From: Strigamia acuminata
Taxonomy: Eukaryota; Arthropoda; Chilopoda; Geophilomorpha; Linotaeniidae
Direction: 5' to 3'
Assembly (NCBI GenBank): GCA_949358305.1
Contig: OX442315.1
Coordinates: forward strand, 9,698,427-9,762,426
Length of the DNA: 64,000 nt
Under the pieces are notes generated by a model. The model was given only the letters and a program-made list of their open reading frames with translations. It was not told the DNA's origin and did not search any database. The translations under genes were made by a program, and so were the position numbers. Shown one piece after another: positions 16,184-60,417 of the stretch (positions within the stretch are counted from its first letter, which is position 1; each line of letters starts with the position of its first letter).

Positions 16184-16734
16184 GTGAACGCAAGTTATTT
16201 GCAATGAGCAAAGGGAATTGCTATTTTTCGAGACGTGATTGACGAGGATTTTGTGTAGTTTCGGTGAAAGTAGGTACTTTTAATTGACGAAAGTTGAAAT
16301 GAACGTAGGCGAGACGTGATGTGATTTTGATGTAGTATTTTCTTGTTTTCGAGGCGAACGCAAGTTATTTGCAGTGAACCGAGAATAACTTGAATTTACT
16401 TGATGATTTGAAGAGATTTAAGACATTTTTCATGGATTTTGGAGGATATTAATAAAAGTCCCGAAAGTGAGCAAAACGAAACAAATCTATCGCCATTTTT
16501 CCAGCGAATAAAGCGAACTTTGCACATTTTCGAAATGTTAACTTAGCATTTAATTTTAAAAGTCAATAGAAATAGCTTTGAATATTTAATTGGTTTAGAT
16601 GAAATAATTTGAATATTGTATAAAGTTAGAGACTTAATGAAATTTAGACAAATCGATTGTATACATGAATTATATTGGTCATTAATGAATTTTAATTAAT
16701 GAATTTAATTTATTTTTGCACATATTAGACTTGA
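16184..16734 (+). other. Spacer between pol and the Ulp1-like ORF
   Basis: No ORF seen. A motif GAACGCAAGTTATTTGCA is present twice (about 16187-16204 and 16361-16378). AT-rich just before the next ATG. A splice acceptor for a subgenomic mRNA could lie here, but I cannot single one out. Confidence 0.5.
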
Positions 16735-29127: not shown

Positions 29128-30217
29128 AGGCTGCCAAATTTTAAACAAAATTTGAAGTTTTGCATGTCTATGATGAATTCGAGTAGTGTAACGTTTATGG
29201 TGATTTTTGTGTGTAAAATAAATTTCGTTTGAGATTTATAAGTGTTTAATATATTTTATTTTTTTTTGAAAAGGCAATAAGTGTAACTCACTTTGTTCTT
29301 TATTCTCCGCTGTGGAAATTATACGTTTTAACAAAATAATAATTTCTACCGCGTGGTCAGGCCTAAAGGCCCAACCCCGAGAATGGGAGTCTTGCCCGAA
29401 CTTGTTGAAGTTGGTTCCGCCCGGGTAATGTCATTTTGTCGTCGACAATCTGACAAAACCACGCGGTCGGGCCTAATTTTGAAAAGTTGACCCTTTGACG
29501 GAATTCTTAAAGAATTCTATCAATTTAACAGTTGCCTTATTTTTAGAATGTTCCAAATAAGTAATTTTGCTTGAAACCTCAAGTTAAACCTAAATTTATT
29601 TGCCTAAATAAATAGAAGGAAAATTGATGCTTTCCGAAGGAATTAAAATTTATATTTTATTTCAAAGTGGGTTTACCTTATTTTACAGACGTGATTTACA
29701 TTGGAATGTTGGTTAAAAATCGTGATTTCAAGGCGTTGGAATCGAATTTTACGAATGGAGTACCGTTCGAATTTTAGCGAAGAAAAATTCTCACTGTTGT
29801 GTTGCCTAGCAACCAGGTTGTGCAGAGAAGCCGTCGATTCAAACGATTTGACGCGCTTTATTAAAATTGTGGGTTTTAATACTTTAAAATTCTCATGGAA
29901 TGGTCATTTTTATTAAATAAATTTGATAATATTTTAAAATACTTTGAAAAGTATCCATTTTGTTTGGTGACTACGTCATAACACTGGAATCTGTCAAGAT
30001 TACGGTTTCACGAACTTGATGATTTCCACCAATCTCGGACGAGATTGGACTCTCGCGAGACTAGCGTTGATACTTGACCAATCAGAGAGGTGTATCGAAG
30101 TATTCATACTTCCATTCGAACTAGTGTGACCACTGCTTCGTTTGCGATCCTCCTGAACGTTTGCACTTCATCGTTATCTCTCAGACTTAGGAAATTTTCT
30201 TAGTTTTAAGTTTAGTT
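29128..30217 (+). other. Long 5' leader
   Basis: About 1.1 kb without a convincing ORF. A CGCGGTCRGGCCTAA motif is present twice (about 29350 and 29462). A GCCTAGCAACCAGG...AGAAGCCG motif (29802-29836) has a relative downstream of pol (38313-38347). Confidence 0.6.
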
Positions 30218-35400: not shown

Positions 35401-36660
35401 GCGGGAAGGTCCCAAAATCAGTATATTTTTGTCATTATTGACAATTGTACCAAGTTCGTTGAAATTAAGGCTTTGACCAAAGCCACGAGCGCTAACTGTG
35501 TTCAAGAATTAAGATCTGTTACAAACAGATGGGGACACCCCAAAAAGATTGTGAGCGATAACGGAAAACAATTTGTTTCCGATATTTACAATGAGTATTG
35601 CGAAATGTACAACATTCGCCCGTCTCATACGAGCACGTATCATGCCCAGGCGAACCCGACAGAGCGAGCCAATAGAGATATAAAGACGATGCTGGCCCTG
35701 TACACAGATGTGCACACGCAATGGCCACGATATTTAGACAAATTCGCGTTCGCGATGAGAAATAATGTCTCAGCGGCAACGGGCTCAAGCCCGATGCTAC
35801 TGAACACGGGACGAATCGTAACATTACCTTTCGACCCAAGGATTATTAAACATGCCAATCCATTTGACAAAGAAAATCCAGAAAAATATGTCAGAGTACT
35901 ATTAGATATATTACGCAGATCGCATCAAGAGATGCATCGCAGAATTCAATTGAATTTTGAACGACATAGGAAAATACACGAACAAAAGTTCGTAATTACG
36001 GAGTTCGAAGTTGGAGATTTAGTTTGGAAACAGACTCACATTCTCTCGTGCGCAGATAAAAATATCTCCGCTGGATTTGCCGAGAAGAGAGATGGACCGT
36101 GGGAGATTACTAAAGTACTTCCAGGCGGAGCGTATAAATTACGCAAATTAGCTGATGGTTCGATTGAAAAATCAGTAAATATTAAAGCGTTGTATCCCTA
36201 TACTCCGTCGTATCCGGTTGAGACTTGGAAAGTAGGACAAAAGTCCGCCTCTTACTCGCCTCAAGAAAATCCTAAATGGATGGATGAAAGTAACCAACTT
36301 CCGGATGCTGAAGAAATGGAATTAATTCCTGAAACTGCTTCAGAAATTCCAATGGAATTATCCGACTCAACTTCGGTGCAAATTGACAAATCTGCGCCCA
36401 TTAAGTCTAAACATAGACATAGACAACGCTTAACTGCTATAGAAAAGAAAGCGGCGTTGAAAAGAGGCGAAGTTTCAAAGAAACCACCTCAAAAACCCCG
36501 CAAACCCCAACCGATAGTTCCACGAACTAGCACTCGTCCACGACGAGAACGAAAACCAAATCCTAAATATGCAGATGAAAATTTCGTGCGAAACATCACT
36601 GCAGTATTTAAAAAACCATACCAACAACGAGGAAAAGCCTCAAAGTTCTGTTGGAATTGA
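32455..36660 (+). CDS. pol: Pol (PR-RT-RNase H-IN) of the 1749-bp-LTR gypsy element
   Basis: The frame is -1 relative to gag and is open from the slippery site to TGA at 36660. The first ATG is 32530, giving 1376 residues; positions below count from that ATG. Aspartic protease DTGAS at 87-91; RT with SIDLVKGYYQVE and YLDD at 432-435; RNase H starting TDAS with Asp581; integrase HHCC zinc region (about 880-930, ending CTHCAQY) and catalytic residues Asp951, Asp1010 and Glu1045; then a GPW-x-I-x-K module like the GPY/F domain; then a basic Pro/Lys/Arg-rich tail. All catalytic residues are present and no stop interrupts the frame, so the enzyme set looks functional. It could also mobilise the RT-less element at 45492, which shares its primer type and LTR ends. 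Confidence 0.96.
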   Translation, partial: KKLGPGDEGLFHPPEVANAASESLFMDVDTTCLEIATSHSGGVEENLQEMTEQLKNLTLFPHKCYTKKFCRLRRLNRVIGGNNLHNITLGNNKDDPRMKITIGGLTYNALMDTGASQCYIGEQLLSETQALPEFLQEAPRNMLVNAVGVAHKPVGQITLCVQWADEFTPMNFIVLAKRVCGLILGHNFMRRQKISPHPHLQEFSCADKPNWSAPYESEEANLALAPLNRITFDYLGLSSTLNSIELTDTPVLTWDEKLVEESDCTPEQRLALRKVVNSIPNVFRDQVGCTNVTQHRIKFKEGHSLPKMQYRMYNPAKRAIMTKLAAELEQDGLIEKAKGPFISHPVIVAKPDGSYRMCIDYRWLNAITEVEVIQMPSIDLLLHNTGPAKYFTSIDLVKGYYQVEMCEEDRPKTAFYTPNGPYQFVRMPFGLCNAPCTFQRLMEGILGSALQDYALVYLDDVIVYSDNWDDHLKHVRDVLERLNQANMTINKAKSRFGRTELKFLGHWIKPEGLFGDPDKISAIMKFPTPTCAKDIQRFHGMTNFFRKFVSNHGTIAAPYTRMMNEKTPFEWGDEQTEAFNKIKELLCGDNCLHKPDMTLPFVVMTDASHEGLGAVLCQDVDIFDEKKQKNISVPRPVAYASRVLRGAEKRYTTPELECLAVVWAIDRFKPYLEYGTFTLESDAEALKWLMRTPEPSGKFGRWALRIQCGNFKIVFRKGAANQVADALSRAPLTEEDIPLQDHVEPVEIKQYWPEWDGNPSVSLNRAPEKREYLASVRSYFSENSKECSEEKEGEEVQETLYSALTEVLKEVPPTRREIIDAQLLDNECKRIREYLLNDKVVGIPQSEIKEWKNKVKNYCLDRKEKDGDQMIIYFNPSFEEELNDSGNGFKAVVPSSLVKRVLFACHGHPLSGHAGMSKTLEKTRLIYFWPGMSRSVRNYVKSCTHCAQYKPIQQKRHAAPYTPHNMTNPWECINMDLMGPKPAGRSQNQYIFVIIDNCTKFVEIKALTKATSANCVQELRSVTNRWGHPKKIVSDNGKQFVSDIYNEYCEMYNIRPSHTSTYHAQANPTERANRDIKTMLALYTDVHTQWPRYLDKFAFAMRNNVSAATGSSPMLLNTGRIVTLPFDPRIIKHANPFDKENPEKYVRVLLDILRRSHQEMHRRIQLNFERHRKIHEQKFVITEFEVGDLVWKQTHILSCADKNISAGFAEKRDGPWEITKVLPGGAYKLRKLADGSIEKSVNIKALYPYTPSYPVETWKVGQKSASYSPQENPKWMDESNQLPDAEEMELIPETASEIPMELSDSTSVQIDKSAPIKSKHRHRQRLTAIEKKAALKRGEVSKKPPQKPRKPQPIVPRTSTRPRRERKPNPKYADENFVRNITAVFKKPYQQRGKASKFCWN

Positions 36661-42834: not shown

Positions 42835-43253
42835 TGGTGAGTGTTTAACGTTGCTACAACGTTGAAAAACGGATTCGCGACGTTTTTCTGGCCTAGAACG
42901 TCGATTACGGGTGACCGGAGATCGTCGGAAGGAGACGCGGCATTCGAGGACGTTTTCGCGGCACGGCGATTCGAGATTCGCGTGCTTTGTGGCGCAGAGA
43001 AGTCGACGAGTTGCGAACGAGTGGAATTCGACGTTTTTCGTGGGAAAACAACGTGGAATCGTCGGTGGATGGTTACTATAGAAAGTAGGAACAATTCTAA
43101 GTGTTTTGAGAATTTGTTTGGTGGAAATAACACCATTTTTCGTCGTTTCAAATCAACGATGGCGCGTCATAGTAAGATGGCGGCGCACACAGTTCGAGTG
43201 TATTAGCAGCTGTGGAAAGTGTTTTCGGAAGTTTTGCAAGTACTTTCAAGTAC
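42835..43253 (+). other. Leader of the tRNA-Met element, first part
   Basis: GC-richer than its surroundings, with a TAAGATGGCGGCG motif at 43173-43185. A frame is open over 42841-43206 but lacks ATG and known motifs. Continues at 60418 after the insertion. Confidence 0.5.
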
Positions 43254-44077
43254 TGTGGTGAGCATGGGGGTTAAATATTTCCCCCCGAGTGGATATTTGC
43301 CCCATGACTCACTGCAATAGACCGGTCGTTCCCCTCGTGTTGGCTCCGCTTCTCCCTGAGCAGGTGTGTGCCCCGAGGGGAGTGAGGTGTCGGGTGGCAA
43401 GCCCCCATTGGCTGCGCCGGCCCCTCACACTGACCCATAAAAGGGAGAAATTCCCGCCAAAAGTCAGAACTTACACAAACGACACCAAGAACACAGCAAC
43501 TACCTCACCGTCAGGCCAACTCCACCAAAAGTTAGGATTGATCGAGGACCGCTGATTCCAGTGCAACTGTAACTCTCACGAATTTACACTGTGTGTTATT
43601 TCCCCCGCGAAAGCAGGAAAATAACCCTTGTGGATTCACACGAAATAATCGACCCACGATTATTTCCATTGCGAAGTGTCCGAGTGCCCTGTAAGAAACT
43701 CCCCGTTTCTGGACGGAGCCTTGCGACGCTAAAACCAACCCCTAGACAACAGGCACGGATAGAAGACTCGAAAGAGCATTCCACCGCGTCCGTGAACGAC
43801 GAATCCGTGACGAATTAACGACAACTCGAGACGCCGCCTTTGTTCCGCCGACCACGCGGGACCGACGACGCCATCTTGAGAAATCCTTTGTTCGACTCTG
43901 ACCAAGTCGACTCTAGTTTTATACTGAGTGTATTTTAAGGCTTACGCCTATTGAATAAACCTGTTTGTTCATTTACATATACTTAGTATTCATTTGGGTA
44001 ATTTACATATTTAGTAGAATCACAGGTAAAGTAATACACGTTAGCTCTTTAAACCTATCACCAGGTAGGACGCGACA
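43254..44077 (+). repeat. 5' LTR (824 bp)
   Basis: TGTGGTGAGC...GACGCGACA. It has a CATAAAAG box (43434) and a polyadenylation signal (AATAAA, 43962). It contains CGCCATCTTG (43869), the complement of a YY1-like core. Confidence 0.95.
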
Positions 44078-44079
44078 CG

Positions 44080-44097
44080 TGGGGGCCTGTCCGGGAT
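44080..44097 (+). other. Primer-binding site, tRNA-Pro-like
   Basis: TGGGGGCCTGTCCGGGAT, two bases after the LTR. It complements animal tRNA-Pro 3' ends (TGGGGGCTCGTCCGGGAT) except for a CT/TC swap. Confidence 0.7.
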
Positions 44098-44142
44098 TTA
44101 GAAATAAATCTCAACTGAACTTGTGATCTCTCTTTTGAAAAA

Positions 44143-45491
44143 ATGACCCAAATGAAAATTATGTCAGACAAAGGTGAACAATCCACGTCTAAAACCAAGC
44201 AACCTTTGCCCGAAAAGTCAAACAAAGACGAACAATCTGCGTTTGATACCGAGCAGCCTTTGCTCGAAAAGTCAGACAAAGACGAACACTCCACATCTGA
44301 AACCGAGCAACCTATGCTCGAAAAAGGGAAAAAGGCCTCCGATTACCATCTACGGTCGGGCGGCCCCATCCCCGAACCATCCGCAAAGGCGAAAGCCCGA
44401 GCGAATCGAAGAAAGGCGAAGGCGCAGAAAGAGGAAGAAGCAGCTTTGCTCAAGGCCCTAACCGAGCCCGAGCGGGAGCCGCTCTCCTTGAATATGCCCT
44501 CCACCAAAAATACCGATACGGAAGTTCCAGAAAATCGAGAAGAAATTTGCGATAAGTCAACGGAACGAGTACCGATATTAATAGCCGAGGAGACAGTCAA
44601 AACTCCAAAGCAAACAAATACAGTCGGCACAGACACACCGCCACCGACGTATCAAACGTCCGCCGCCATAAACCAAACTCCGGAACGGAACACGAGCAGG
44701 ACCCCGATGGCCTCCCGAGGCCCGGCGAGACCTGCCCCAGTTTCTCCGGAAGTCGCCCATTTGATCCATTTATCGCAACAAGCGGCTCAACTAAAAGTCT
44801 CAACAAACATTCCGTTTGGAACTTCAGCCTGGGACTCAATCACGCTACTCACTGAGGCCATTTGCGCAGCAAAAGCCCCGACGCCGTTTGCAAGACTAGC
44901 GGCGGCGACACCCATGCTGCAAGAAACGCCAAGCGAGTTAAGCAACTTCGTACCAGACCCCCATAAAACTCTTCACGAAGCCAGAGAAAAAGCCCGAGAA
45001 GAAGCCAAGATAAGGCAAGAATGGGACATCCCCGTAGAAGGAAGGCGTAAAAGAGCCCAAGACTACAAGGACCGCAAATGCTCAGAGAATGAAGAAACTA
45101 AATGGCATTTATTTTGTGAAAGCAGCGACAGAAGGGAGCCGCCGCCATCCGGAAGCTTGAAGAAGCCACGAGATGGCGATGAAGTCCCACCTAGAGGAGC
45201 AGAGAATCGCCCCCATGGCGACCCCTCCGACTCGTCGGACGACGACCACCCAAATCGGTCGTCCACGAGGACAAACCGAACGGGCGGGGATGGCGACCAA
45301 CGCCAACCTGACCCCACGAGCACCTCAAACCAATCTTCCCGGAGCTGTCACCTTCGCCCACAAAAAGGAAATGATTTTCTAACCAATCCCAAGCCGCATG
45401 TCCACGAACAAACGACAAGGGACAACAGAAAGGAAGCATCAAGTAGAACTAAATCACTACAAAGTAGCCCCGAGTCTGAATTTGAAAATTA
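44143..45491 (+). CDS. ORF1 of the RT-less element, 5' part
   Basis: ATG at 44143, 46 bases past the primer site, in the gag position. The first 80 residues hold three repeats of a charged unit (SxxEQPLLEKSDKDEH-type), then SDYHLRSGG and a basic stretch (KAKARANRRKAKA). A Pro/Thr-rich linker and a Pro/Asp/Arg-rich tail follow. A short helical block (VAHLIHLSQQAAQ) and an Ala-rich segment (TLLTEAICAAKAP, FARLAAATPM) might be a reduced capsid, but no family is recognisable. The nested element enters after base 45491; with it and one ATTA copy removed, the frame runs on at 54924 without a break. Confidence 0.8.
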
Positions 45492-47404
45492 TATGACGGT
45501 TTACAATGGCTATAAATGCCTATTTTCTATCAAGAAAGCGCTGTTGCGCCAATATGATGGTATTTTTACAATATTCTGTGTAAAACTGATAAATGTCTAG
45601 AATAAAGTCATTTATGATGTTTCAAATACAAAGATGTTCGTTTATTAAGAATAAACACTAATTTCCACATGATACTAAAGTATCACGGCATAATTACGAA
45701 GATTCGTCTGCTAAAACCCGCATTTGTCAATGCTCCATATTGCCACTAGATGGCGCGATCGCAATTAGCGATAAATTCGAATACGAACTTGAAAACCTCA
45801 TGATTAAATATAAACGTATATTTAATCAAGTGAATAAATTGTGTTAAATATTAATATAAATATATATTAAGTATCTGACATTGTTAAATACAATGTAACT
45901 TCCATTTCTGCGGGACAGAATGTTTAGCGATCAATCGGTCAACCGATCAATCTGATTGGTGGAACCCATTTCCGGTCCTGGGTATCCAGTTCCGGTTGTA
46001 ACAAGGATTAGCATAATTTGCATAAATGCTCCTCCGTATCCACTTCCGGTGATACGGGATTGGAGGGATTCGTGGAACCCATGTTCCAATTGGATGACTG
46101 GATTAATCCTTAAATCCAGTCAGGTTATATAAACCCAAACAATCGGCCATTCCGCAGCTCTGTTTGATTATTTCTGTTTGGTATTGTTACTTAAGAAGTA
46201 TGATTCGTTGTTCACGTAAAAAACCTTTTGGTTCTTTGTTGATTTATTCGCAAAGAACCGTTGCATGATTCTACAGAATCATGCCACCGCCGGCAATTGA
46301 AGTCGAAGTGCTGGGATTATTATGTTGCATAAATGTTACAGTCTACGGTTGCGACGCCGAAGGAGAACCCGCCGTTGTGCAATTCAGTATCCTCCGGACA
46401 GGACCAAGTTGTCTTTTTCGGTATGAACGTATTCCGTTACCACGAGTAGCATCGGTATTGTTGAGAATCGGTTCCTTCACCTGATGGTGCCAAAGCAGTC
46501 TGTTTTACAGTAACCACGAGTAGCACCAAGTGTTTGGCAAGCTGATTCTCATGGTATTCGATGCCAAAGCAGTCGGTCTATTATTAGTACCGCGAGAGAT
46601 AAAACTGCTGTGCGGAGCCGCGAGCTATCGACCCCTGTGTACGTGGTACCGTCAACCACTCGATGGACGACCGTGCTGCGACGCCGGGGACGCTTGATAC
46701 CGTTCTGCATGGCAAGGCGTATATTCTAATCGATGGCAATTGTGTGTTGCGACGGGAAGCTTAATCTTCAATTTTATTTATAACAGCAAAACTTAAACTC
46801 GACAACCAGTTGGACCAAAATCAAGTCAGAAGACTTAATCTCATATTGAACTCAATATAACCGATAAGTTGACGACAACTTATTCCCGAAATATCTAAAT
46901 AAGAATTCACAACGATATGAATTAAATATAATTCATAAGTGGAATATTGATAAGTAAATGAATACATTTACTTACACCAATATCCTCCCAAAGTTGTGGC
47001 GGTGCAGACAAAGTCAACCGCAATGCTCAGATCATTCGATTTATCGACGTGCGATAGTTTACACAGCGAACCAAGGAAACCAGCGAAGCCGTATCGGACT
47101 CCAGGACACAGCCATCCGGCTTAAGATGACATCTATAATCAGGTCGAGCGATGGGGAAACCGCTCCCATATTCCAGACCCGTAGTGATATTATTCTAGGG
47201 CCAGTTGGCCAATTCTTTGTATAGTTTAATAGCTGATTTAACTTGCCAAATGTCGGCATTAGTCCTATGTATAATTTAGCTCATCCATATTGTTTGCCAA
47301 CAATAAACTGTCTTGTATTTATCTCGTATTGTATTCACTGTTTATTTATTGCGATCTCTTCCCGGTACCATTGTCAAATGGGAGTTGTGGTCGTCACCGT
47401 CACA
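45492..47404 (+). repeat. 5' LTR (1913 bp) of the nested element
   Basis: Includes a small frame at 46281-46484 (67 codons, MPPPAIEVEVLG...) that lies, like the MEYSAEYS frame in the 1749-bp LTR, downstream of the probable transcription start. A TATATAAACCC box is at about 46125-46136. Confidence 0.94.
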
Positions 47405-48000
47405 CGTGGAGGTTCCACCGAGATTAGGTTGCAATTAAATTCGATTGAATTGCAACAGTGAATATTGGAGATAAATATTTAACTAAAAGATTTAAGTTAA
47501 AAATAGACAGATTAAATTTTCAGTTTATATTTCCATGTGAAGAAGTTAAACTGATGAAATAGAAATACGTAGTAGATTTTCCTTCATTATTTTCGTTTGA
47601 AGATTTTAGGGATTTCAAAGACTACCACCTAATCTCACACGTGGAGGTCCCACCGAGATTAGGTTGCAATTAAATTCGATAGAATTGTAAAAGTGAATTT
47701 TGAGATAAATATTTAACTAAAAGATTTAGTTAAAAAACAGACAAGTTTCAAACCATGTTTATTTTTTTGAGAAACACCAAAACAGTCCTTTAACTAGGAA
47801 TTTCGGAAGTTATAGACCTATCACACGATCACTGAAATAGGTTGCAAATTAATTCGATCGAATTGCAAAAGCGAATCTTGAATCCGATATTAACTAAAAA
47901 ATTTTAGTTAAAACAGACAAATAGATTTTCAGTTTATATTTTCATGTGAAAAGTTAAACTGACGAAATGGAAACGTTTAGTGAACTCTCTTTACTATTTT
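47405..48000 (+). repeat. Primer-site region repeated about three times
   Basis: The tRNA-Gln site TGGAGGTTCCACCGAGAT at 47407-47424 matches tRNA-Gln perfectly. The block from CACACGTGGAGG through AGGTTGCAATTAAATTCGAT and the following ~190 bases recurs at about 47636-47820 with one change in the site (GGTCCCACC). It recurs again at about 47821-48000, where the site itself is largely lost (CACACGATCACTGAAATAGG) but the rest is kept. Confidence 0.8.
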
Positions 48001-50929
48001 CGTTCGACAATTTAAGGAATACGAAGTATTTTAAATAAGAAATCAAAAAAGTTTCGAGTGAAATAAGAATACAGATATTTTTTTTCGAAGTTTGTTTTAT
48101 TTCGAAAAGCTAAAAACATACAAGTTTAGAAGGCGGACTTCTTACGAATTTATCTTTCCACCTGAAAAGTTAAAACGAAGAAAACACCGCAACTATTTGG
48201 AAATATTTACAAGAAATTAAGTTTCTTGTAACTGTACGTCGACACCGATAGCCAGCGACCACGCGCCATAGCAATACGCGTCGATCTCCGTATCAAACGC
48301 AGCAGGGAAGCTACTCAAACCTTCAACGCAAGGTGCGAACGAATGCTTGGAAATTATGGCGGACAACAGATAAAAGACAGCGGAGAAATGTTACAGAAGG
48401 TTCGTAGAGATTTATTTAAGTGTCGCGAACTAATTTTTCCACTGCCATCGGTACCAAAGATAATTTAGTTGTTGGAGAAAAACAACACACTCCATTTCGC
48501 AGAAAAGATTTGCAAATCGAAATGAATATTACCTTTATTTGAAGGAATTAACTATTTTCACAAAAAGTACATTTTTTCCTTCGGGACAATGGAAATTAAG
48601 AAAATATAAAATGGCGGCGAATGAAGTTGCCGACCACGTAGAATAGTATTTTTTACATTGAAAGTTACGAATCACGATAAACGCTTTCCCTCGGAAAAGT
48701 AAAAGGATTTCATTCAATCTTTCCTTTCGGAAATTTAACAGTGTTTTAAGTTTCCAACGATATTTGGGTCTCCCAAATTTTGAGAATTTCTAAATGAAAT
48801 TTAGCTGTTTGAAAAACAACGAATATTTTTAGTAATCTAATCGGACATTTTCCCACATGATTTCTTAAAACCGGAATAACAAATCCATTTGTGGCTATGA
48901 ACTTTGCCACATGAAATATTTACGGAGCGAATATTTTTTGATTGGATTGAAGCTTTAAAATCAGATAGCTGATTTAAACGAAGAAAATAAGTTTCAAAGT
49001 AATTATTTTTCTTTCGGAAAAATCAAATAAATCACCGCTGATGAAAAGTTGTATTTTTCCATTCGAAAAAACTAAGAATTGCACAAGATTTATCTTCTAT
49101 TTTGAACATAGATTTTATTCGGAAAAGGAAAGATTCTAGATACATTATTTTTCTCTAAAAATTAAGAATTTAGTCAATTTTCCTAAAGGTTAATGGAATG
49201 TCATCATATATTTCGTTCGTAATTTACGTGTTAAAGTTTAATCAGAAAAACGATTGAATATGTTTTATTTGCGATAAGTAAAAGAAAGGTTCTTTAAAAA
49301 TGGAATTTCGATGCAAATCCCACAGTAAAGGGAATGTTATGTGTGAGCAATTAACGAAAAGTTGGAATAACTTCATTTTATTTCATTCAAAAGTAGTTGT
49401 GAAAAATCAATTTCAAATATTTTTCAAAGAAAAATTATTTTTATCGGAAAAAAGTAATTTACATGTCCTCGCGCGGACCGAGTAGTAAACTGCTTAATTG
49501 TGACATCGATACTGTTATTGTGTCACGTGTTATACGGAATTCCAAAACAGTGAATTACGAATTTTGGCGCGATAGGAATAGAAGTTTGACAGTGAAAGTT
49601 CTCCAGATTTGTCTTTTCATTTGAAAAGTTCAAATTGAGGAAATGCTGCAGCAGATGAAGGTATTTACGACAATTGAGATTTAAATATTCTTTCATTCAA
49701 AAGATAAAAGATCTCTGCAAAAACATCTCGTTATTAGAGATAAGGGGGACGAAAATTATTAAAACGAATAATCAAAGACACGTCCTTCGTAAATATCGCA
49801 AAGGAATAACTAATTGTGAAAACAATTGTCCGCTCAGGAAAAGTGGAATTTAGCTAGATATTTTCTTTCGAAAAATCAAAGCAATTGTCATCAAAAAAGA
49901 AAGATTTGATGAATAATTTTTACCCAAAAGTCTAAAGGATTGTCGAATAGTTTTCTCCCGAAAAACAAGTACACATTTGTACCAATAACTTTATCGTTTA
50001 AAGTAAAATTTCGAATATTTTCTTTTGGAAGATTAGAGAATTAGATAATTTTTCTCGCAAAACAAATTTAAAGAATTTTAACGAATTTTTATTTGTTAAA
50101 AAAATTTGTTAAAAAAGGGGGAGATGGATGGTGAAAATTTATTTTTTCACACTCGAAAAATGGAATTTAAACCCGAAAAAGTAAAGACTTGGTCAAATTA
50201 TTCTTCCTATTGGAAATGAATACACAATGTTGGGAATCGAAAATAGATTTCAATTACAAAGGAATGATTATTTGAACGATAATTGAATAAGAATAAGAAA
50301 AATTGAGAGTTTGAGAAAACTTTATTAAAGTTGTGGTTGTAACAATATCACACACTAACGGAATAATTAAAAGAAAAATATTTTTTGAAGAAAAGTTATT
50401 TAATTATTTGGATTGGTAAAAATCCCAAAGTTCAAGAAGATTGAAGTAAGTTTATTTTATTTTCATTTGAAAAATACAATATTTTACGAATGTCTTCCCG
50501 AAGGAATTTTATTTTATCGGTAAAATTGAATCTCGAAGGGAACGGACTTAGTAGAGAACTACTAAATAGATGTAACGTCCTTTATACCATTGGCCGACAC
50601 TAGCATCCGCCAATCAGAAGTTGGGAGATCTAGGGATCCCCAGCCCCCTGCTATTAAAGGAGGACCAGATCAGATACTGATCATTCGCATCCAGACCAGA
50701 CCAGAAGACGTGTTCCAGAGTCATCTTGACCACGCCGTCCCGATTTCAGTCACGATTCGAATTTTGTGTGCCGTGTAACCTGCAAAAGCTAACACGTGTC
50801 AAACAAACGCGAAGTTTAATTTTATTTTGTCAAAAGTAAAGTTTAGAAGTGTTTCTTGTTGAAAAGTGTATTATATTCGTCTTCTTTATAAATTAAAGAA
50901 TTAAAATCGTCAGATTTTGAATTTTTTTT
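48001..50929 (+). repeat. AT-rich leader with a dispersed short hairpin motif
   Basis: No supported ORF. A degenerate motif of the form TTTTC-n-TYGAAAA followed by RTNAAA recurs some twenty times, every 60-200 bases. Examples are near 47938 (TTTTCATGTGAAAAGTTAAA), 48163, 48682, 49006, 49052, 49612, 49858, 49951, 50143 and 50457. Each copy can fold into a small stem. Confidence 0.6.
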
Positions 50930-52411
50930 ATGGCTCAAAAACCATTGAATATGATCGATCCAAAAGGAAATAATAAGCAGACAAACTTAAATTTAAGTTC
51001 TGTACCACTTGGCGATCAAACAGAAAAGATTCCCGATCATTTTACTCTGTATTGTAATCGTCATGGACTGGATAAAACCAAGTTTAAAAATATAATCGAA
51101 GCTTCAGACTATGTAAAAGCTAGGAACTGGCGAGATCGTACCCAATCTCAATCTTCACATCAAGATCCAGTACGGAATCCACAAACATACAGCCGAAACT
51201 TAGTGAATCAAGATTCTCATACTATGTTTCAAACATCCAGTAGGGGATCTAAGTTAGAAAAGTTTAAACCACCTAATTCGGTAGATAAGGGGGAAGAGAA
51301 TTATAAACCTAATAATTCTCGTCCAGAGAGTTCGTTAACTAACCAGTCGGTTGTTCAGAACAAATTAAAACTCGTTTACAATCGAGATCAGCTAATTTCA
51401 GTTCGATATGCTAATCCAGCTGAAGCACAACGATATGTGGCTAGCCTTAATCTGTCGATTAACCTACCGCTATCAAAAGAATTGGGAACCGTAAACAAAA
51501 GTTTTGGGCCACCAATATCAACGCAAAGGAAAGATATTCGGACTCCAAACAAACATTTGCAGTCAAATAACGTACAACAACGTGCCCGATCGCCGATCAC
51601 AAACTCATGTTTGCGGACGTATGATTTGTCTACCAAGAAGAGTCCCCAGCCAAGACAATTCTACCTAACGCCCATTTCAAATCGAAAAAAGGTCAAGCAA
51701 ACTTTTCCCTTGAAAAAGTATTACCAACACGATAATGAGAATGATTTTAAACCTAAAAAAGAAAGTTTTTTGACTAACCCACGGGAGATCCGGTATCAAT
51801 TCGAACAGTATTGTAAACAATACCAGTTAAATTCAGCTGAATTTAAAAATATAAACGAAGCGCAACAATTCGTATTTCGAAATCAATACCGTAACCAACG
51901 ACTAAAACCCGTCCCAGTCGTCAATCTGACGGAGATACAACAATTTGCGTCTGGAAAGCAACCCTGCAATATCCAGAATAATTCATCTCAACGAGAGGAA
52001 TTAAGAACTTCAAAAAAGCGTTTTCGGTCACCAAGTCCAGCTGGTGATGAAGAAACTTCAAGTACAAACCAACATGTTCAAAAACTGACTGAAAACCCAG
52101 GTTTCCAATCATCAGTTCCACGACTTAGAGTCAAATATAGATCCCCTCGTTTGTTGCGGGATTTCACAATTCCAAATATGGGTCCTTTCCACGTATGGTT
52201 TTCCAATGAGGGTCCCATTCATGTATGGTTTTCCAGAGATGACCTAAAACAAAAAGTTGGGTCGTCACGGTCATTTACACTGCCAAGTCAGTACACTGTA
52301 TGTAACTGCCCAAAGGAAAAACGTCGAAAGAAATCAGTACAGCAGGCTGAGAGATCTCGGAAATTCGCAAATATGCGAGCTCAATATTTAGCAAAGAATC
52401 ATGTTGATTAA
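50930..52411 (+). CDS. Gag-N-terminus-like ORF of the nested element
   Basis: ATG at 50930, 493 residues, intact. Two copies of a short motif, LYCNRHGLDKTKFKNIIEAS...YVKARN (residues about 40-70) and QYCKQYQLNSAEFKNINEAQ (about 290-315), match the motif near residue 90 of the Gag at 30218. There is no capsid region and no zinc knuckle. The protein is basic, rich in Asn, Gln, Ser, Arg and Lys, with several KKR/RKR clusters. Near the C-terminus a short tandem repeat reads PFHVWFSNEGPIHVWFS. It probably binds RNA or Gag. Its role, for example recruiting the genome into the helper's particles, is inference. Confidence 0.72.
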   Translation: MAQKPLNMIDPKGNNKQTNLNLSSVPLGDQTEKIPDHFTLYCNRHGLDKTKFKNIIEASDYVKARNWRDRTQSQSSHQDPVRNPQTYSRNLVNQDSHTMFQTSSRGSKLEKFKPPNSVDKGEENYKPNNSRPESSLTNQSVVQNKLKLVYNRDQLISVRYANPAEAQRYVASLNLSINLPLSKELGTVNKSFGPPISTQRKDIRTPNKHLQSNNVQQRARSPITNSCLRTYDLSTKKSPQPRQFYLTPISNRKKVKQTFPLKKYYQHDNENDFKPKKESFLTNPREIRYQFEQYCKQYQLNSAEFKNINEAQQFVFRNQYRNQRLKPVPVVNLTEIQQFASGKQPCNIQNNSSQREELRTSKKRFRSPSPAGDEETSSTNQHVQKLTENPGFQSSVPRLRVKYRSPRLLRDFTIPNMGPFHVWFSNEGPIHVWFSRDDLKQKVGSSRSFTLPSQYTVCNCPKEKRRKKSVQQAERSRKFANMRAQYLAKNHVD

Positions 52412-53006
52412 CATGATATGATACACAAAGATTCCCCGATTATAGTGTAAACAGAAAATCCTCTTCTAAAAATCATGACCTCTCTTCTAAAGAAAAGGGG
52501 GACAAAATATAAAGTTAAAATTAACAATTCTCGAAAAGTAATATTACAGTATTAAAAGACAACTAGTTTAAATTAAAATTAGTCAATTGTACAAAGAATA
52601 CCAAGTGACTCCGGTCATGACAATTAAGGGGGACATTTTGATTCTTAAATTGTCAACTCTTATCATCTAAAAGCTATTTATTGTATATTTATAGCGATAC
52701 ATCTGACTAGGCATATGAAATAAATATTTTGTGATAACACAAATGATGATTTTATGTATGACGAAAGTTTCTTCAAAAAGAAGACTTGGAAATAAATTCT
52801 GGACTTGAATTTAGGCTATTAGAAAAGATTATTTCGGCAGAAAATCAGAACTTAGATAATTCAAGTTAGTTTATGTAAACTCAAATTCGAAATTGGAAGT
52901 CACGGTATCTCCAAGATACATCAAGTCCGAAAATAGCATTTATGCTAATTAGGAGAATAACGAAAACTCTATAAAATATTATATAGTTGTGTTATTAAGG
53001 GGGATG
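52412..53006 (+). other. 3' untranslated region of the nested element
   Basis: AT-rich with three AAGGGGGAC/GGGGGATG purine runs (52494, 52627, 52997). The last abuts the 3' LTR as the polypurine tract; the earlier two may be extra plus-strand priming sites. Confidence 0.6.
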
Positions 53007-54919
53007 TATGACGGTTTACAATGGCTATAAATGCCTATTTTCTATCAAGAAAGCGCTGTTGCGCCAATATGATGGTATTTTTACAATATTCTGTGTAAAA
53101 CTGATAAATGTCTAGAATAAAGTCATTTATGATGTTTCAAATACAAAGATGTTCGTTTATTAAGAATAAACACTAATTTCCACATGATACTAAAGTATCA
53201 CGGCATAATTACGAAGATTCGTCTGCTAAAACCCGCATTTGTCAATGCTCCATATTGCCACTAGATGGCGCGATCGCAATTAGCGATAAATTCGAATACG
53301 AACTTGAAAACCTCATGATTAAATATAAACGTATATTTAATCAAGTGAATAAATTGTGTTAAATATTAATATAAATATATATTAAGTATCTGACATTGTT
53401 AAATACAATGTAACTTCCATTTCTGCGGGACAGAATGTTTAGCGATCAATCGGTCAACCGATCAATCTGATTGGTGGAACCCATTTCCGGTCCTGGGTAT
53501 CCAGTTCCGGTTGTAACAAGGATTAGCATAATTTGCATAAATGCTCCTCCGTATCCACTTCCGGTGATACGGGATTGGAGGGATTCGTGGAACCCATGTT
53601 CCAATTGGATGACTGGATTAATCCTTAAATCCAGTCAGGTTATATAAACCCAAACAATCGGCCATTCCGCAGCTCTGTTTGATTATTTCTGTTTGGTATT
53701 GTTACTTAAGAAGTATGATTCGTTGTTCACGTAAAAAACCTTTTGGTTCTTTGTTGATTTATTCGCAAAGAACCGTTGCATGATTCTACAGAATCATGCC
53801 ACCGCCGGCAATTGAAGTCGAAGTGCTGGGATTATTATGTTGCATAAATGTTACAGTCTACGGTTGCGACGCCGAAGGAGAACCCGCCGTTGTGCAATTC
53901 AGTATCCTCCGGACAGGACCAAGTTGTCTTTTTCGGTATGAACGTATTCCGTTACCACGAGTAGCATCGGTATTGTTGAGAATCGGTTCCTTCACCTGAT
54001 GGTGCCAAAGCAGTCTGTTTTACAGTAACCACGAGTAGCACCAAGTGTTTGGCAAGCTGATTCTCATGGTATTCGATGCCAAAGCAGTCGGTCTATTATT
54101 AGTACCGCGAGAGATAAAACTGCTGTGCGGAGCCGCGAGCTATCGACCCCTGTGTACGTGGTACCGTCAACCACTCGATGGACGACCGTGCTGCGACGCC
54201 GGGGACGCTTGATACCGTTCTGCATGGCAAGGCGTATATTCTAATCGATGGCAATTGTGTGTTGCGACGGGAAGCTTAATCTTCAATTTTATTTATAACA
54301 GCAAAACTTAAACTCGACAACCAGTTGGACCAAAATCAAGTCAGAAGACTTAATCTCATATTGAACTCAATATAACCGATAAGTTGACGACAACTTATTC
54401 CCGAAATATCTAAATAAGAATTCACAACGATATGAATTAAATATAATTCATAAGTGGAATATTGATAAGTAAATGAATACATTTACTTACACCAATATCC
54501 TCCCAAAGTTGTGGCGGTGCAGACAAAGTCAACCGCAATGCTCAGATCATTCGATTTATCGACGTGCGATAGTTTACACAGCGAACCAAGGAAACCAGCG
54601 AAGCCGTATCGGACTCCAGGACACAGCCATCCGGCTTAAGATGACATCTATAATCAGGTCGAGCGATGGGGAAACCGCTCCCATATTCCAGACCCGTAGT
54701 GATATTATTCTAGGGCCAGTTGGCCAATTCTTTGTATAGTTTAATAGCTGATTTAACTTGCCAAATGTCGGCATTAGTCCTATGTATAATTTAGCTCATC
54801 CATATTGTTTGCCAACAATAAACTGTCTTGTATTTATCTCGTATTGTATTCACTGTTTATTTATTGCGATCTCTTCCCGGTACCATTGTCAAATGGGAGT
54901 TGTGGTCGTCACCGTCACA
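53007..54919 (+). repeat. 3' LTR (1913 bp) of the nested element
   Basis: Same length as 45492-47404 and no difference found by eye. The MPPPAIEV frame is at 53796-53999. Confidence 0.94.
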
Positions 54920-54923
54920 ATTA

Positions 54924-56919
54924 TAAGCACAAGCCAAAGAAAAAAGCTCGAGACAGAGAAGCAACGCTCTTTTCATGTCCAAGCCACACCGAAGTAACGA
55001 GCGAGGCCGGCTACCTGACCAAGCTATTAACAAAAGCGCCAGACGGCAAGACTGTACAAAAAGAGAATTTAACAAAAACAGTCTTTTCTTTTTCGGGAAG
55101 AATAAACGGCGACAAAAACGAAAACAAAACGGCAAACGATGTACGGGTTTCTACACTTACTCCACTGCAAGCCATGAATATTCGTGATGAACATGGACAA
55201 ACAAATAAGGCAGGGCAAGCAATATTAGAACCAATGGAAAAAATTAAACAATTTGATGAAGGAAACAGTGCGAGAAATACAAGCACCAGCCAAGCACGTC
55301 GACGTACGAACATCTCGAACACTGACACTTATTCAACCAGTTTGGATGATATCGTGGATCAGCAAATACAAATTGACGCGAGTCGCACGACAGATGAACG
55401 AGAATGTATCGGTATAAACCGAAAGGGAAGGGAAGAAGCGCTGAAGCAAAGAAAGAAGCATTGTCACAAGCAATGGAACAATAAAAAGCCACCAAACAAT
55501 TCGAAAAATCAGCCAGATGGGCCACAAGGCGGACGGCTACATCATTGTCACCACTCTGAAAATAATGACAATAAAGCTCGCCACAAGAAGGAGAATAAAC
55601 AACAAGAACGGTCTCAGTCACCATTAATCACCTTAATTCCGTTGCACCCCGCGCATAACAACTTTTATGGAGACAAACATGACATTCAAAAGAAATGCAA
55701 AGGAATTCGATGTCAATTATTTCACAATAACCAAGATTTGTTGCCGGAAAATATGACTGACAAACCAGAGCTTTTGCAAGATGACCAATCAAGTCTTCAT
55801 CAGGAAACTGTCCAACAAAAACAGCCCGATGTAACTCCAGCCCAACTGGAGCAAGCGATTTCGGAGAGGGAGGAAGCAGAAGAAATCACTTCTGAAAATG
55901 ATAAAACACATCATCCTCACCGTTCCAAACAGAAATGCGACGAACATCATCTCGAGCGGGAAGACAGAAAATGGAATCGATTGTTATCCCCAATGAACAA
56001 ATATAAATCCACCCCCTGTCTAAATGAAAGGAAAAAACTAAAAGACTGCATTCATGAGCCTAACCAATCAAACACGTTACATAATCCAAAAGTTGACCGT
56101 CAAATTGGGGCCTCTTCACGCAGCCCGATAAAAACCAGAGCAACAGTGAAACAAAAACAGCTAGAAAAAATGGCTCAACCACCTCCAGTTGGAACCTCAC
56201 AAACCCCTCAAGTTACTAAGCCTACCAGAACGAAAAACCAAAAAGAGAAACGAAAAAAAACAAGAGAAAAAAAGAACCGACCGGCACAGAGTCAAGCAGC
56301 CAATTGCGAACCATTTGCAATGAAGCGCCGACCGCCCGATCTCACTATGCGGTGCCACAATAAAGAGTTTGTTGCTAACCGCTCCTTCTCAGAGCTCAAG
56401 AGAGCGAATCAGTTAGACGAAGACATCTTGGGAGGAGAGGAGATAAAGAAAGCAACAATAATTTTGGAAGAAAATCAAGAAAAGCCAAAAAAGGAGAAAG
56501 GAGCATTAAAAACAGATTATGAGCAAGACAAACTGTGTCCAAACTTCAAGGACAATCGGAGTGAGCCAGACAGCACTAGAATGATAGAAGTGCAGTCAAC
56601 TCGGAAGAAACAGACCCTCTGTTTGTTACACGAGCTCCCGCTGGCCAACCACCCAGACAAGGCACAGACCCATTATCGAGCCAAAAAACTAGTGTGTTGG
56701 CCGAGGATGAGAAAAAACACTTCTTATCTCATTGGACAATATCCCCAAGATGTTGCCACTGGGCGGATTATGATCTGTGCCCTCGCTAAACGCTTTGCTG
56801 AGGAGATCACACAGAATTTGCATGATGTAGCACTGAGATTCAAATTCATAAAAAAGTATCATCAGACAATAACGCGCAATTTGTCTTTAAAATATGCAAA
56901 GATTTCTGTGGCAAATTAA
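54924..56919 (+). CDS. ORF1 of the RT-less element, 3' part
   Basis: Continues ORF1 in frame after the nested element, to TAA at 56917-56919. Together the two parts make 1115 codons including the stop. Lys/Glu/Gln-rich, largely disordered in appearance, with many His and Cys but no clear zinc knuckle. The last 100 residues look more folded (LCLLHELPLANHP, VCWPRMRKN, FAEEITQNLHDVALRFKFIK). The bases between 54805 and 54923 that extend this frame upstream belong to the nested LTR and are not part of the gene. A slippery heptamer lies at 56850. Confidence 0.78.
56850..56856 (+). promoter_or_regulatory. Candidate -1 frameshift site A-AAA-AAG
   Basis: In the ORF1 frame: AT(A) AAA AAG TAT. Slipping back one base gives AAA AAA GTA, which is the ORF2 frame, and that frame is open from here to 59558. 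ORF2 has no ATG until residue 43 of the annotated frame, consistent with expression as an ORF1-ORF2 fusion. Confidence 0.6.
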
Positions 56920-59558
56920 AGAATATCCTGAGCAAACCATATGGATATGAGTGCAAGTGGAATCAAACCCTGATTGTACGGATTTTCGACATACTTGAGA
57001 GAATTCACAATTTGGAAACGGATCTTCCATTCAAAGACTCCAAAGCTAACGACCAAGTTTGGAAAGAAATTCAAAGACTGCCCAGTGCGACAAAGGATAC
57101 TGCTGCCAGTCAGGCAGCTCAAAGAATTAGTTCCGGCATGAGCAGAGCTGGACAAAGCAGCGATACTTACAAACTGCTACAAATAATCTACAGCTACAAA
57201 TCAAAGTCTGTAGATGTGGATCAACTGACACAATATCTGCCAGAGTTTTCCCCGGAGTTCTTTCGTCAAGCGTACCCCGAGAAAAACGCCAACGCCTGGG
57301 CCATTCGCTTGCGCTACTCACGAACGAGCAAGGAGCACTTCAACCAGTCGCGAACAGCGAAATGTACGCCGCAAAGCATGCGTGAAAGAGTGGGGCCGCA
57401 AATCGATCCCGATTTCGATTCGCCGAGCCCTATCTTTAACGAATTAATTCGAGCTTGGTACGGAGGTACCGAAGCGGACGAGCGCACCTCCCTCAGGTGG
57501 CGCAACGCCCCGACCCCCGAGGCTCGGCAGCAAATCGTCCGCGAAGAAATCGCTCACCTCGAGCGTGCGGCGACCCGCGCTGTAACCCGAGCGTTAGAGC
57601 GAAACGGCTTCTCTCCTGAAGAAGTCCGAGAATGGTGGCGAGACGTGCGAGAAGACAACCAAACGCCACGTTGGATACCGCCCGTCGGTTTTGTCGCCAC
57701 TCAAGCTGAAATGTGGCAACTACTTCAGGTCGGAATTCTCCGAAGTGGCCAACGATTGGGGAAATTGAAGAGGCAAGCTCAGAGCTTGACCGGCGGCCCT
57801 GCTCGAATTAGACAGGCCATCTCCTCCGTGGAGAGCAGCCCATCGACGAGTGGGACGCAGCTTAGTCGCTCAGACAGCTCCGGCTCAAGAAGTCAAGTAG
57901 TCATCCACCAAGGAGGCCATCGATCAGTCGAAGTCGTACCTGCCTTGTCCAACAAAGCGCGGGTCAATCAAGAAGCCGAGCCCTCTAACCTCTGGAGTGA
58001 TCACGTCGACGAGCAGGAGAGACAGGCGACTGACAAGGCAACGTCTTCCCTTTTTCTCGTGCAGACCGCGCAATTGTCGGACGAGACGTCGACAACTTTC
58101 AAACATAGGGGCGTCCGTCGCCCGAACCAAAAGACCACGACGACCGCTCCGCAGGCTGTCGTGACCAATACCTTGCGGAACAGGAAGCGCAGGTTCCGTC
58201 ATCGACAACGGATCAAGACGTTGTGGACAACCTTGGCAGCCCAAAAGAAGAAGGCGACCAACGCCAAAGCTTTCGACCCACCAGGGGTCAAACCCGTGAT
58301 CGAGTCGTCCTTCGACCGATCGAAAGAACCAGAGGCATGGTGCAGGACCATTGAAGAACGAATGGTATTGGACGAAGAACCTAACCTGGAGAAACCCATT
58401 TCCCGAAAGGAACTGGCCGAAGCGCTGACCCATGCCCTTCGTGGATTCTTTGCAAATCGACCAGAGTCGTCCGCAAACAGCGTCCCAATCGCGCCAACCT
58501 CTCACCAGGTCCAACCGCAGTGGCCACTTCTCCTTGAGGTAAAGGCCACGGCACTGATCATGTGGTCGCTCCCTGACAGCTCGCTATCAGGAGCGGCGAC
58601 TCATGCGCCAGTCGGATACCAGCTACCTGACCTATGTGCTCCACCCATTCCACCGCCACCTCAGGCGCCAAAACCACACCGCAACGTTATGTGGTATGAG
58701 GAGCGGGATCTCGGCGCTCGGAACCGAAGAGAAGCAACAAATCCCACCTTGGGAGAACTGCAGGCTTACCAGACTGAGTTTGAAGATCCAGCAGCTGCCA
58801 AGCTGGCTTTGACTCAGACCGACCCCGCTCAAATAGCCCACATCAACTGGGCGATAACCCAATCGCTCCTACAATGGATGGCAAAAGAAGCATGGACCAC
58901 CGTTAATCAAGGGAGTATAAGAATATCTCCATCAATGAGCAACACGTGGAGCCAAATTGTCTCCTCGACAAGCAACATCCGCCATGGTTTGACACATAAC
59001 AAAGTCAAGTCAGAGGCAGAAACGCAACAAATCATGATGGTGAAAATTTCCCCGAGGAAGGACGTAGCAGCAGCCAACAAATACCGACTGTCCCGGCCAA
59101 TCACATCAGCTAGCCAACAGTCAACCAGCCCTTGGAGTGTCATTTCACCAGTTGCAGTTGGAGCCTCGACAACTTCACCATCAACTAACAATCACGAGCG
59201 ACAAGACTCATCACGGAACTCACGAAATGAACCCACAGTACTGAGAGCACCAAAGTCAATTCCAACTCAGACGGCTAGCCCATTTGTACTGACCATTGCC
59301 ACAAAGACATCGACCCCTCACAACGACAGTAGAACTCTTGTTGTATTCCTCACATACTGGAGGCGTACACCGACCAAAACAACATGCAAACCAAAAAATA
59401 AACATGTTTTGTTCTCCATGAATGACCAAAACGACCTACGTTCTGTCCTCAACGGAAAACGATTATTCCCGACACCTCACATCCCGGCATCAGCCTTAAG
59501 ATTTGATTATACTTTACCACGGGCTGAGAGCTGGAGGAGAGTTAGGGATCGCTTGTGA
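56857..59558 (+). CDS. ORF2 of the RT-less element
   Basis: The frame is in -1 relative to ORF1, overlaps its last 60 bases and runs about 900 codons to TGA at 59556-59558. Counting from 57012 (848 residues): a helical first 120 residues; a region at about 140-260 rich in charged and Trp residues (NELIRAWYGG, EEIAHLERAATRAVTRALER, EEVREWWRDVRE, PRWIPPVGF); a Ser-rich linker; a basic cluster (RNRKRRFRHRQRIK, about 390); a possible second fold (about 430-490, SRKELAEALTHALRGFF); then Pro- and Ser/Thr-rich sequence. I searched it by eye for DTG, YxDD, TDAS and DDE patterns and found none. It stands where pol should be. I do not recognise the family. Confidence 0.75.
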
Positions 59559-59589
59559 ACACCCCGTGTTCAAAGCTGGGGGAAGGACG

Positions 59590-60413
59590 TGTGGTGAGCA
59601 TGGGGGTTAAATATTTCCCTCCGAGTGGATATTTGCCCCATGACTCACTGCAATAGACCGGTCGTTCCCCTCGTGTTGGCTCCGCCTCTCCCTGAGCAGG
59701 TGTGTGCCCCGAGGGGAGTGAGGTGTCGGGTGGCAAGCCCCCATTGGCTGCGCCGGCCCCTCACACTGACCCATAAAAGGGAGAAATTCCCGCCAAAAGT
59801 CAGAACTTACACAAACGACACCAAGAACACAGCAACTACCTCACCGTCAGGCCAACTCCACCAAAAGTTAGGATTGATCGAGGACCGCTGATTCCAGTGC
59901 AACTGTAACTCTCACGAATTTACACTGTGTGTTATTTCCCCCGCGAAAGCAGGAAAATAACCCTTGTGGATTCACACGAAATAATCGACCCACGATTATT
60001 TCCATTGCGAAGTGTCCGAGTGCCCTGTAAGAAACTCCCCGTTTCTGGACGGAGCCGTGCGACGCTAAAACCAACCCCTAGACAACAGGCACGGATAGAA
60101 GACTCGAAAGAGCATTCCACCGCGTCCGTGAACGACGAATCCGTGACGAATTAACGACAACTCGAGACGCCGCCTTTGTTCCGCCGACCACGCGGGACCG
60201 ACGACGCCATCTTGAGAAATCCTTTGTTCGACTCTGACCAAGTCGACTCTAGTTTTATACTGAGTGTATTTTAAGGCTTACGCCTATTGAATAAACCTGT
60301 TTGTTCATTTACATATACTTAGTATTCATTTGGGTAATTTACATATTTAGTAGAATCACAGGTAAAGTAATACACGTTAGCTCTTTAAACCTATCACCAG
60401 GTAGGACGCGACA
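59590..60413 (+). repeat. 3' LTR (824 bp)
   Basis: Differs from the 5' copy at about 59622 (T for C), 59685 (C for T) and 60056 (G for T). Preceded by the purine tract AAAGCTGGGGGAAGGACG and followed by GTAC. Confidence 0.95.
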
Positions 60414-60417
60414 GTAC

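What the first reader, a model, noticed from the sequence alone, without database searches (positions are those of the whole stretch)
43254..60413. Young LTR element with two long intact ORFs but no reverse transcriptase, integrase or protease
LTRs, primer site, purine tract and TSD all mark a real LTR retrotransposon, and the LTRs differ by only about 0.4%. Yet its ~2000 coding codons hold no known retroelement enzyme. Most non-autonomous LTR elements (LARDs, TRIMs) have lost coding capacity; this one keeps two large frames in a gag-pol layout. Intact frames suggest selection on unknown proteins, for example a Gag substitute or a factor that exploits a helper.
Basis: partly seen in the sequence, partly recalled or inferred. 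Interest (0 to 1): 0.9.

Follow-up and report, generated by a model that had tools for sequence, protein, structure and literature searches.

The report
Helper-dependent retrotransposon keeping one open frame
This is a jumping element that has lost the capsid and enzymes it would need to copy itself and is probably copied by larger intact relatives in the same genome, yet it keeps one very long reading frame free of stops, much of which shows little sign that its protein sequence matters.

Summary
The two ORFs are pieces of one frame: an un-nested copy has a single 2159-codon ORF. So this is a non-autonomous Ty3/gypsy derivative that lost capsid, zinc knuckle, PR, RT and RH. Two results go beyond an ordinary deletion. 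(1) LTRs are mosaics switching at the predicted RNA start: U3 belongs to the non-autonomous lineage, R-U5 is about 99-100% identical to helper LTRs, from three helper sets in different copies (two read, the third inferred). That fits first-strand transfer from a co-packaged helper RNA. (2) Between subfamilies Gag-N shows purifying selection (omega 0.34-0.60, 8 of 10 intervals below 1), while the part after it has omega 0.67-1.36 (9 of 10 intervals include 1), yet no in-frame stop where 8-10 were expected in most pairs. The frame seems kept open with little regard to its amino acids. The helper part is well supported; the reason for openness is inferred.

The parts
43254..44077 (+). 5' LTR (824 bp)
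   Evidence: 3 mismatches to the 3' LTR; mosaic
43254..43464 (+). U3 part of the 5' LTR, of the non-autonomous lineage (predicted boundary)
   Evidence: 195/209 identical to B, 136/192 to helper 1
43465..44077 (+). R-U5 part of the 5' LTR, helper-like (predicted boundary)
   Evidence: 605/612 identical to helper 1, 529/600 to B
43250..43253 (.). target-site duplication GTAC, left copy
60414..60417 (.). target-site duplication GTAC, right copy
44080..44097 (+). primer-binding-site-like stretch (tRNA not identified)
   Evidence: sequence; genome scan uninformative
44119..45491 (+). first piece of the long frame: Gag N-terminal extension, cut by the nested element
   Evidence: tblastn with helper Gag 1-600
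45488..45491 (.). ATTA duplication of the nested element, left copy
45492..54919 (+). nested younger LTR element (LTRs 45492-47404 and 53007-54919)
   Evidence: LTRs 1913 bp, 100% identical
54920..54923 (.). ATTA duplication of the nested element, right copy
54924..56919 (+). second piece of the long frame: middle region with integrase remnants (the stop-to-stop frame starts at 54790, inside the nested LTR)
56593..56718 (+). integrase H2C2 zinc-finger remnant
   Evidence: Pfam PF17921, E 4.2e-5, 24 bits vs cut-off 25.5
56826..59558 (+). third piece of the long frame after one frameshift in the overlap 56826-56919; from about 57264 related to helper ORF3
59578..59587 (+). polypurine tract
   Evidence: sequence
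59590..60413 (+). 3' LTR (824 bp)

Best explanation
The element is one copy of a diversified, non-autonomous Ty3/gypsy lineage derived from 12.8-kb Gag-Pol-ORF3 elements in the same genome. It has lost capsid, zinc knuckle, protease, RT and RNase H and keeps a single frame from leader to polypurine tract: a Gag N-terminal extension, shuffled integrase remnants and, in this subfamily, much of ORF3. It is copied by helper proteins: its RNA is packaged together with helper RNA, helper R-U5 is copied first, and that strong-stop DNA is transferred to the R of the non-autonomous RNA, so new copies pair their own U3 with a helper's R-U5. Selection acts in cis on its translation: Gag-N as a protein (perhaps for entry into helper particles), the rest chiefly to stay open so that ribosomes run to the end of the RNA, for example to avoid decay of RNAs with a long 3' untranslated region. 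Shown: derivation, losses, mosaic LTRs, constraint on Gag-N, openness with weak or no amino-acid constraint downstream. Inferred: co-packaging and strand transfer, the role of Gag-N, and the reason for openness.
For: Helpers: L024+L025 encode Gag with CCHC, PR, RT, RNase H, H2C2 and rve, then ORF3. Losses. Mosaic LTR: U3 A-B 195/209 against A-helper1 136/192; R-U5 A-helper1 605/612, B-helper2 609/610, A-B 529/600; a third set of about 12-kb-spaced LTR pairs matches R-U5 of copy C5 at 98-100%; the switch lies at the predicted start site, 27 bases after the start of a TATA-like box. Selection: Gag-N omega 0.34-0.60 in 10 pairs, 8 of 10 CIs below 1; after Gag-N 0.67-1.36, 9 of 10 CIs include 1 (transition bias 3). 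Openness: no in-frame stop, 8.8 expected for window-L021 codons 1264-2159 and 9.7 for B1-B2 after Gag-N; the other two frames show 4-16 one-sided stops in the four comparisons with 89 or more substitutions. 24 of 27 scored copies have an open frame of 1499 codons or more (counted by hand).
Against: No transcript, peptide or mobilisation data. The window copy is broken. In one search, 3 of 27 copies have shorter frames (1282, 1201, 913), and 7 of 27 have a stop inside at least one matched row, 4 of them among the 24. Many copies are young, so their open frames alone prove little; the case rests on a few subfamilies whose pairs share branches and may recombine. After Gag-N omega is not uniformly 1: B1-B1b is 0.67 (CI 0.48-0.97), and with transition bias 1.5 two of 10 CIs exclude 1; over the whole ORF omega is 0.52-0.83. 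Weak protein constraint is therefore not excluded. In global alignment 7 of 23 A-B gaps are not divisible by 3, and Gag-N holds several 1- and 2-base gaps. The RNA start is predicted, not measured; the third helper set was not read.
Confidence: 0.72

Rival explanations
1. Conserved but fast-evolving polyprotein: the whole long protein is needed (for example a disordered scaffold or a factor acting on helper particles), with loose sequence requirements after Gag-N.
For: Whole-ORF omega 0.52-0.83 between five copies; after Gag-N B1-B1b is 0.67, CI below 1; frame open end to end.
Against: 9 of 10 CIs after Gag-N include 1; group B lost most of ORF3 and B3 lost the coiled coil while the frame stayed open, so no one domain after the first part of Gag-N is kept by all.
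Confidence: 0.35
2. Plain young deletion derivative: the frame is open only because too little time has passed; mobilised in trans with no role for its own product.
For: Window LTRs differ at 3 of 824 sites; L021 and C5 differ by only about 20 codon changes; the window copy already carries a frameshift.
Against: Between subfamilies 8-10 stops were expected in 7 of 10 post-Gag pairs and none was seen in the five frames compared; five distinct indel lengths after Gag-N are all multiples of 3, against 0 of 12 in the LTR control, the window copy's own frameshift being the exception; Gag-N omega below 1.
Confidence: 0.12
3. DNA-level gene conversion between LTRs, not strand transfer during reverse transcription, made the mosaics.
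For: Conversion between repeats occurs and is discussed for crapaud LTRs (PMC10787394, passages).
Against: The switch lies at the predicted RNA start in A and B with different helper sets, and both LTRs of a copy carry the same mosaic (window and L021).
Confidence: 0.12

Closest known systems
RLG_Quinta / RLG_Cereba in wheat (PMC11302176; passages read)
   Same: Non-autonomous Ty3/gypsy with an intact ORF (GAG plus a domain of unknown function), same PBS and LTR ends as its autonomous partner, and a second LTR half conserved from near a predicted TATA box onward.
   Different: Quinta keeps GAG and is thought to supply it; here capsid and zinc knuckle are lost, the frame fills the whole interior, and more than one helper set matches R-U5.
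RLG_Sabrina / RLG_WHAM / RLG_Wilma in wheat (PMC9744471; passages read)
   Same: Long-lived non-autonomous or semi-autonomous lineages co-evolving with an autonomous partner.
   Different: Long Sabrina elements encode GAG and protease; no LTR-to-LTR frame of this kind appears in the passages read.
ONSEN recombinants in Arabidopsis (PMC5668417; passages read)
   Same: Most LTR recombinants fit recombination at the first template switch, in R, between co-packaged RNAs.
   Different: There between members of one family during a burst; here between a non-autonomous lineage and helpers only about 68-79% identical to it in coding DNA.
LTR swapping in soybean autonomous/non-autonomous elements (Du et al. 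2010; seen only as a title in a reference list)
   Same: By its title, LTR exchange enhancing an autonomous/non-autonomous partnership.
   Different: Text not held, so not compared.
crapaud of Podospora (PMC10787394; passages read)
   Same: LTR variation mostly in U3, before the TATA box, with the rest conserved; template switching discussed.
   Different: Has Gag and RT-RNase-IN ORFs; not a helper/parasite pair in the passages read.

Membership tests
LTR retrotransposon | paired LTRs, target-site duplication, primer-site-like stretch, purine tract | tested here: met
   (tRNA match of the primer site not shown)
Autonomous Ty3/gypsy | own PR-RT-RH-IN in that order | tested here: not met
   absent from the window element, L021 and L058; present in the relative L024/L025
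Derivative of a Ty3/gypsy helper | shared LTR, leader, Gag-N and ORF3 with an autonomous relative | tested here: met
LARD (definition recalled) | large interior without coding capacity | tested here: not met
   2159-codon ORF in L021; 24 of 27 scored copies with 1499 codons or more
TRIM (definition recalled) | very short element without coding capacity | tested here: not met
   un-nested copy about 8.2 kb with a long ORF
TR-GAG / semi-autonomous Gag donor (definition recalled) | keeps a Gag with capsid | tested here: not met
   helper Gag 620-1057 gives only E 0.002, 0.026 and 0.24 against L058, L021 and the window element
Helper-mobilised non-autonomous element | cis signals shared with the helper | tested here: met
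Helper-mobilised non-autonomous element | mobilisation in trans demonstrated | not testable with these tools
   no expression or activity data

The most novel reading that the evidence does not exclude
After Gag-N the long frame is not a protein gene but a cis-acting open frame: selection removes stops and frameshifts so that ribosomes traverse the whole genomic RNA, while the amino-acid sequence drifts almost freely. Openness of a reading frame would then be a selectable property of a retrotransposon RNA in its own right.
Probability: 0.35. Interest if true: 0.8.

Novelty: new variant of a known kind. Interest (0 to 1): 0.62.

Why it matters
Non-autonomous LTR elements are usually sorted into those without coding capacity and those that supply Gag. 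This lineage fits neither: it dropped capsid and enzymes but kept an end-to-end frame through several subfamilies. It offers a natural test of whether translation of a retrotransposon RNA matters in cis apart from the protein made. The LTR mosaics point to the helpers by sequence alone and warn that whole-LTR trees of such elements mix two histories.

Tried and rejected
Rejected: unknown replacement enzymes (helpers with normal pol and integrase remnants); a chance ORF (stop counts in the three frames); two independent intact ORFs in this copy; an envelope-like ORF3 (highest 19-residue hydropathy mean 0.92 for helper ORF3).

Led nowhere: helper ORF3 had no hit at E up to 0.001 among the 7990 scored candidates of the large protein search, no NCBIfam hit (a library for prokaryotes), no PDB sequence match at E up to 1 and one sub-threshold Pfam hit. 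AlphaFold2 without alignment on a 225-residue window piece was poor (mean pLDDT 44.6), so no fold search was run. A genome scan for the primer-site 12-mer was uninformative (271+250 matches, 266+250 for the reversed control). The organism was not identified; a COX1 match on contig C157 with 11 in-frame TGA fits an invertebrate mitochondrion (inference). A genome-wide protein search with helper ORF3 did not complete. Literature searches (listings only, open-licence papers only) listed nothing that I recognised as an LTR-to-LTR frame of this kind. PMC4079200 was seen in passages: recombination between centromeric elements, some non-autonomous. One control (helper1-helper2 Gag-N) was read in a wrong frame and is discarded; corrected (dN 0.196, dS 1.178). 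One search aligned some window pieces loosely across indels; mask such positions and are preferred. One search was run after the report was first drafted, to pool the part after Gag-N; it added one pair with omega below 1.
Full report
What is there. The window is G000:C3:9698427-9762426 of a 237.5-Mb assembly. LTRs lie at 43254-44077 and 59590-60413, 824 bp, with 3 mismatches, flanked by GTAC. Inside sits a second LTR element, 45492-54919, with 1913-bp LTRs identical over their whole length and an ATTA duplication. By coordinates alone the host element accounts for about 7.7 kb.

One frame, not two. Stop-to-stop frames are 44119-45600 (its end reads into the nested LTR), 54790-56919 (its start reads out of the nested LTR) and 56826-59558. 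In the un-nested copy L021 (C1:52472490-52481680) they correspond to a single ORF of 2159 codons. The window copy has this frame cut by the nested insertion and by one frameshift within 56826-56919.

Relatives with a normal pol. The LTR search scored 40 of 752 candidates and includes pairs about 12 kb apart. One such element, read as L024 and L025, has a 1057-aa Gag with a zinc knuckle (E 0.0024, 18.3 bits, under the cut-off of 20.8), protease, RT, RNase H, H2C2 finger and integrase core, then a 974-aa ORF3. Helper Gag 672-761 aligns with residues 429-520 of another gypsy Gag in the window (E 1.4e-7), which itself matches Retrotrans_gag at 465-528; this is the basis for calling it capsid. tblastn of helper parts against L021, L058 and the window element finds Gag 1-600 and integrase pieces in each, and ORF3 strongly in L021 and the window element but only weakly (24% over 92 residues) in L058. 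For Gag 620-1057 there are three weak hits (E 0.002, 0.026, 0.24); for PR-RT-RH none at E up to 1. In L021 the integrase pieces are out of order: the Pol C-terminal tail lies before the zinc-finger remnant.

Non-autonomous subfamilies. Searches show a subfamily A (window, L021, C5, C1:547, C4, C1:400) and a larger group B. L058 (B) has a 1745-codon ORF between its LTRs. With the L058 protein, 27 of 4835 candidates were scored; counting by hand, 24 of 27 copies show an open frame of 1499 codons or more, the other three 1282, 1201 and 913; 7 of 27 have a stop inside at least one matched row, 4 of them among the 24. The window copy was not among the 27. A and three of four B copies share the junction where Gag stops matching the helper, and all five share the stretch around SEFENYK and much of the middle, so a common non-autonomous ancestor is likely. 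The four B copies lack most of ORF3, and B3 lacks the coiled-coil part of Gag-N.

LTR mosaics. In LTR positions 1-211 window-B identity is 195/209, window-helper1 136/192, B-helper2 158/209. In positions 212-824 (two intervals summed, gap columns left out) window-helper1 is 605/612, B-helper2 609/610, window-B 529/600. The switch lies at about TCAGAACTT (position 211), 27 bases after the start of a TATA-like ATAAAAGG (184). Helper 2 was found because B's R-U5 matches LTR pairs 12.04-12.05 kb apart at 97-100%; pieces of one such element were read and show Gag, a PR-RT-RH-IN frame and an ORF3 relative. R-U5 of copy C5 matches a third set of pairs about 12 kb apart at 98-100%; these were not fetched, but several lie beside helper-type Gag hits. 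Window, L021 and C4 fit helper 1 best, C5, C1:547 and C1:400 the third set. Intermolecular first-strand transfer during reverse transcription would leave this pattern; ONSEN recombinants point to the same step (PMC5668417), and Quinta/Cereba share the LTR half from near the TATA box on (PMC11302176).

Selection. Five full ORFs were compared in all ten pairs, with positions near gaps masked and transition bias 3 (assumed; ts/tv 463/318 in the A-B alignment). Gag-N omega is 0.34-0.60, CIs below 1 in 8 of 10; the two others have only 18 and 25 substitutions. After Gag-N omega is 0.67-1.36, CIs including 1 in 9 of 10; the exception is B1-B1b, 0.67 (0.48-0.97). With transition bias 1.5 the range is 0.57-1.15 and 2 of 10 CIs exclude 1. 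Split into four regions after Gag-N, 36 of 36 listed intervals include 1 (rows with few changes were not printed). Window-L021 over codons 1264-2159 gives 0.98 (0.75-1.37). Control: helper1-helper2 omega is 0.07 in the capsid part and 0.11 in PR-RT-RH, with saturated dS.

Openness. No in-frame stop occurs where 8.8 (window-L021) and 9.7 (B1-B2 after Gag-N) were expected. In the other two frames one-sided stops number 6 and 13 (window-L021 ORF3 part), 7 and 6 (window-L021 middle), 15 and 16 (B1-B2), 8 and 4 (B1-B1b), 5 and 3 (B2-B3), and 0 in the true frame each time. Losses of existing stops count in the other frames, so this is a guide, not a matched test.

Indels. Gaps with well-matched flanks after Gag-N have five distinct lengths (27, 45, 12, 3, 141), all divisible by 3; the one exception is a 1-base gap at the window copy's own frameshift. 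The LTR control (window-B1) has 12 gaps, none divisible by 3. Within Gag-N several 1- and 2-base gaps occur while the frame stays open. In global alignment 16 of 23 A-B gaps are divisible by 3.

Mechanism. Shown: derivation from helper-type elements, loss of capsid and enzymes, mosaic LTRs, constraint on Gag-N, openness with weak or no amino-acid constraint downstream. Inferred: packaging with helper RNA, a role of Gag-N in it, and selection on translation through the RNA, perhaps to avoid decay of RNAs with long 3' untranslated regions. The stop codon ends 31 bases before the 3' LTR, so the frame nearly fills the interior.

Limits.

Noticed in passing
45492-54919: Nested LTR element with identical 1913-bp LTRs; a 2-kb piece of its interior matches 40 genomic places at about 100% (capped at 40 scored), yet its longest interior ORF is 496 aa (50921-52411) with no Pfam domain above cut-off. 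The ORF holds two copies of a short motif also seen in the gypsy Gag at 30191 (E 2e-4 and 0.056). Apparently recent, abundant and non-autonomous.
   Followed up: partly
10773-18096: Ty3/gypsy-like ORFs with protease and RT, followed at 16735-18096 by a 453-aa ORF with a sub-threshold match to Peptidase_C48 (Ulp1-like; E 0.0039, 17.5 bits, cut-off 20.7).
   Followed up: partly
30191-36660: Two-ORF Ty3/gypsy element with Gag, CCHC, PR, RT, RNase H and integrase domains.
   Followed up: partly
3128-7612 (minus strand): Copia-type element with gag and integrase domains (4553-7612) and a further 474-aa ORF at 3128-4552.
   Followed up: no
16-262 and 1170-1271 (minus strand): Fragments 82-85% identical to parts of the LTR of the studied element.
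   Followed up: no
L025:2588-5512: ORF3 of the helper, 974 aa, in the place where an envelope gene would lie, without homologues in the searches run and without a strongly hydrophobic segment.
   Followed up: partly
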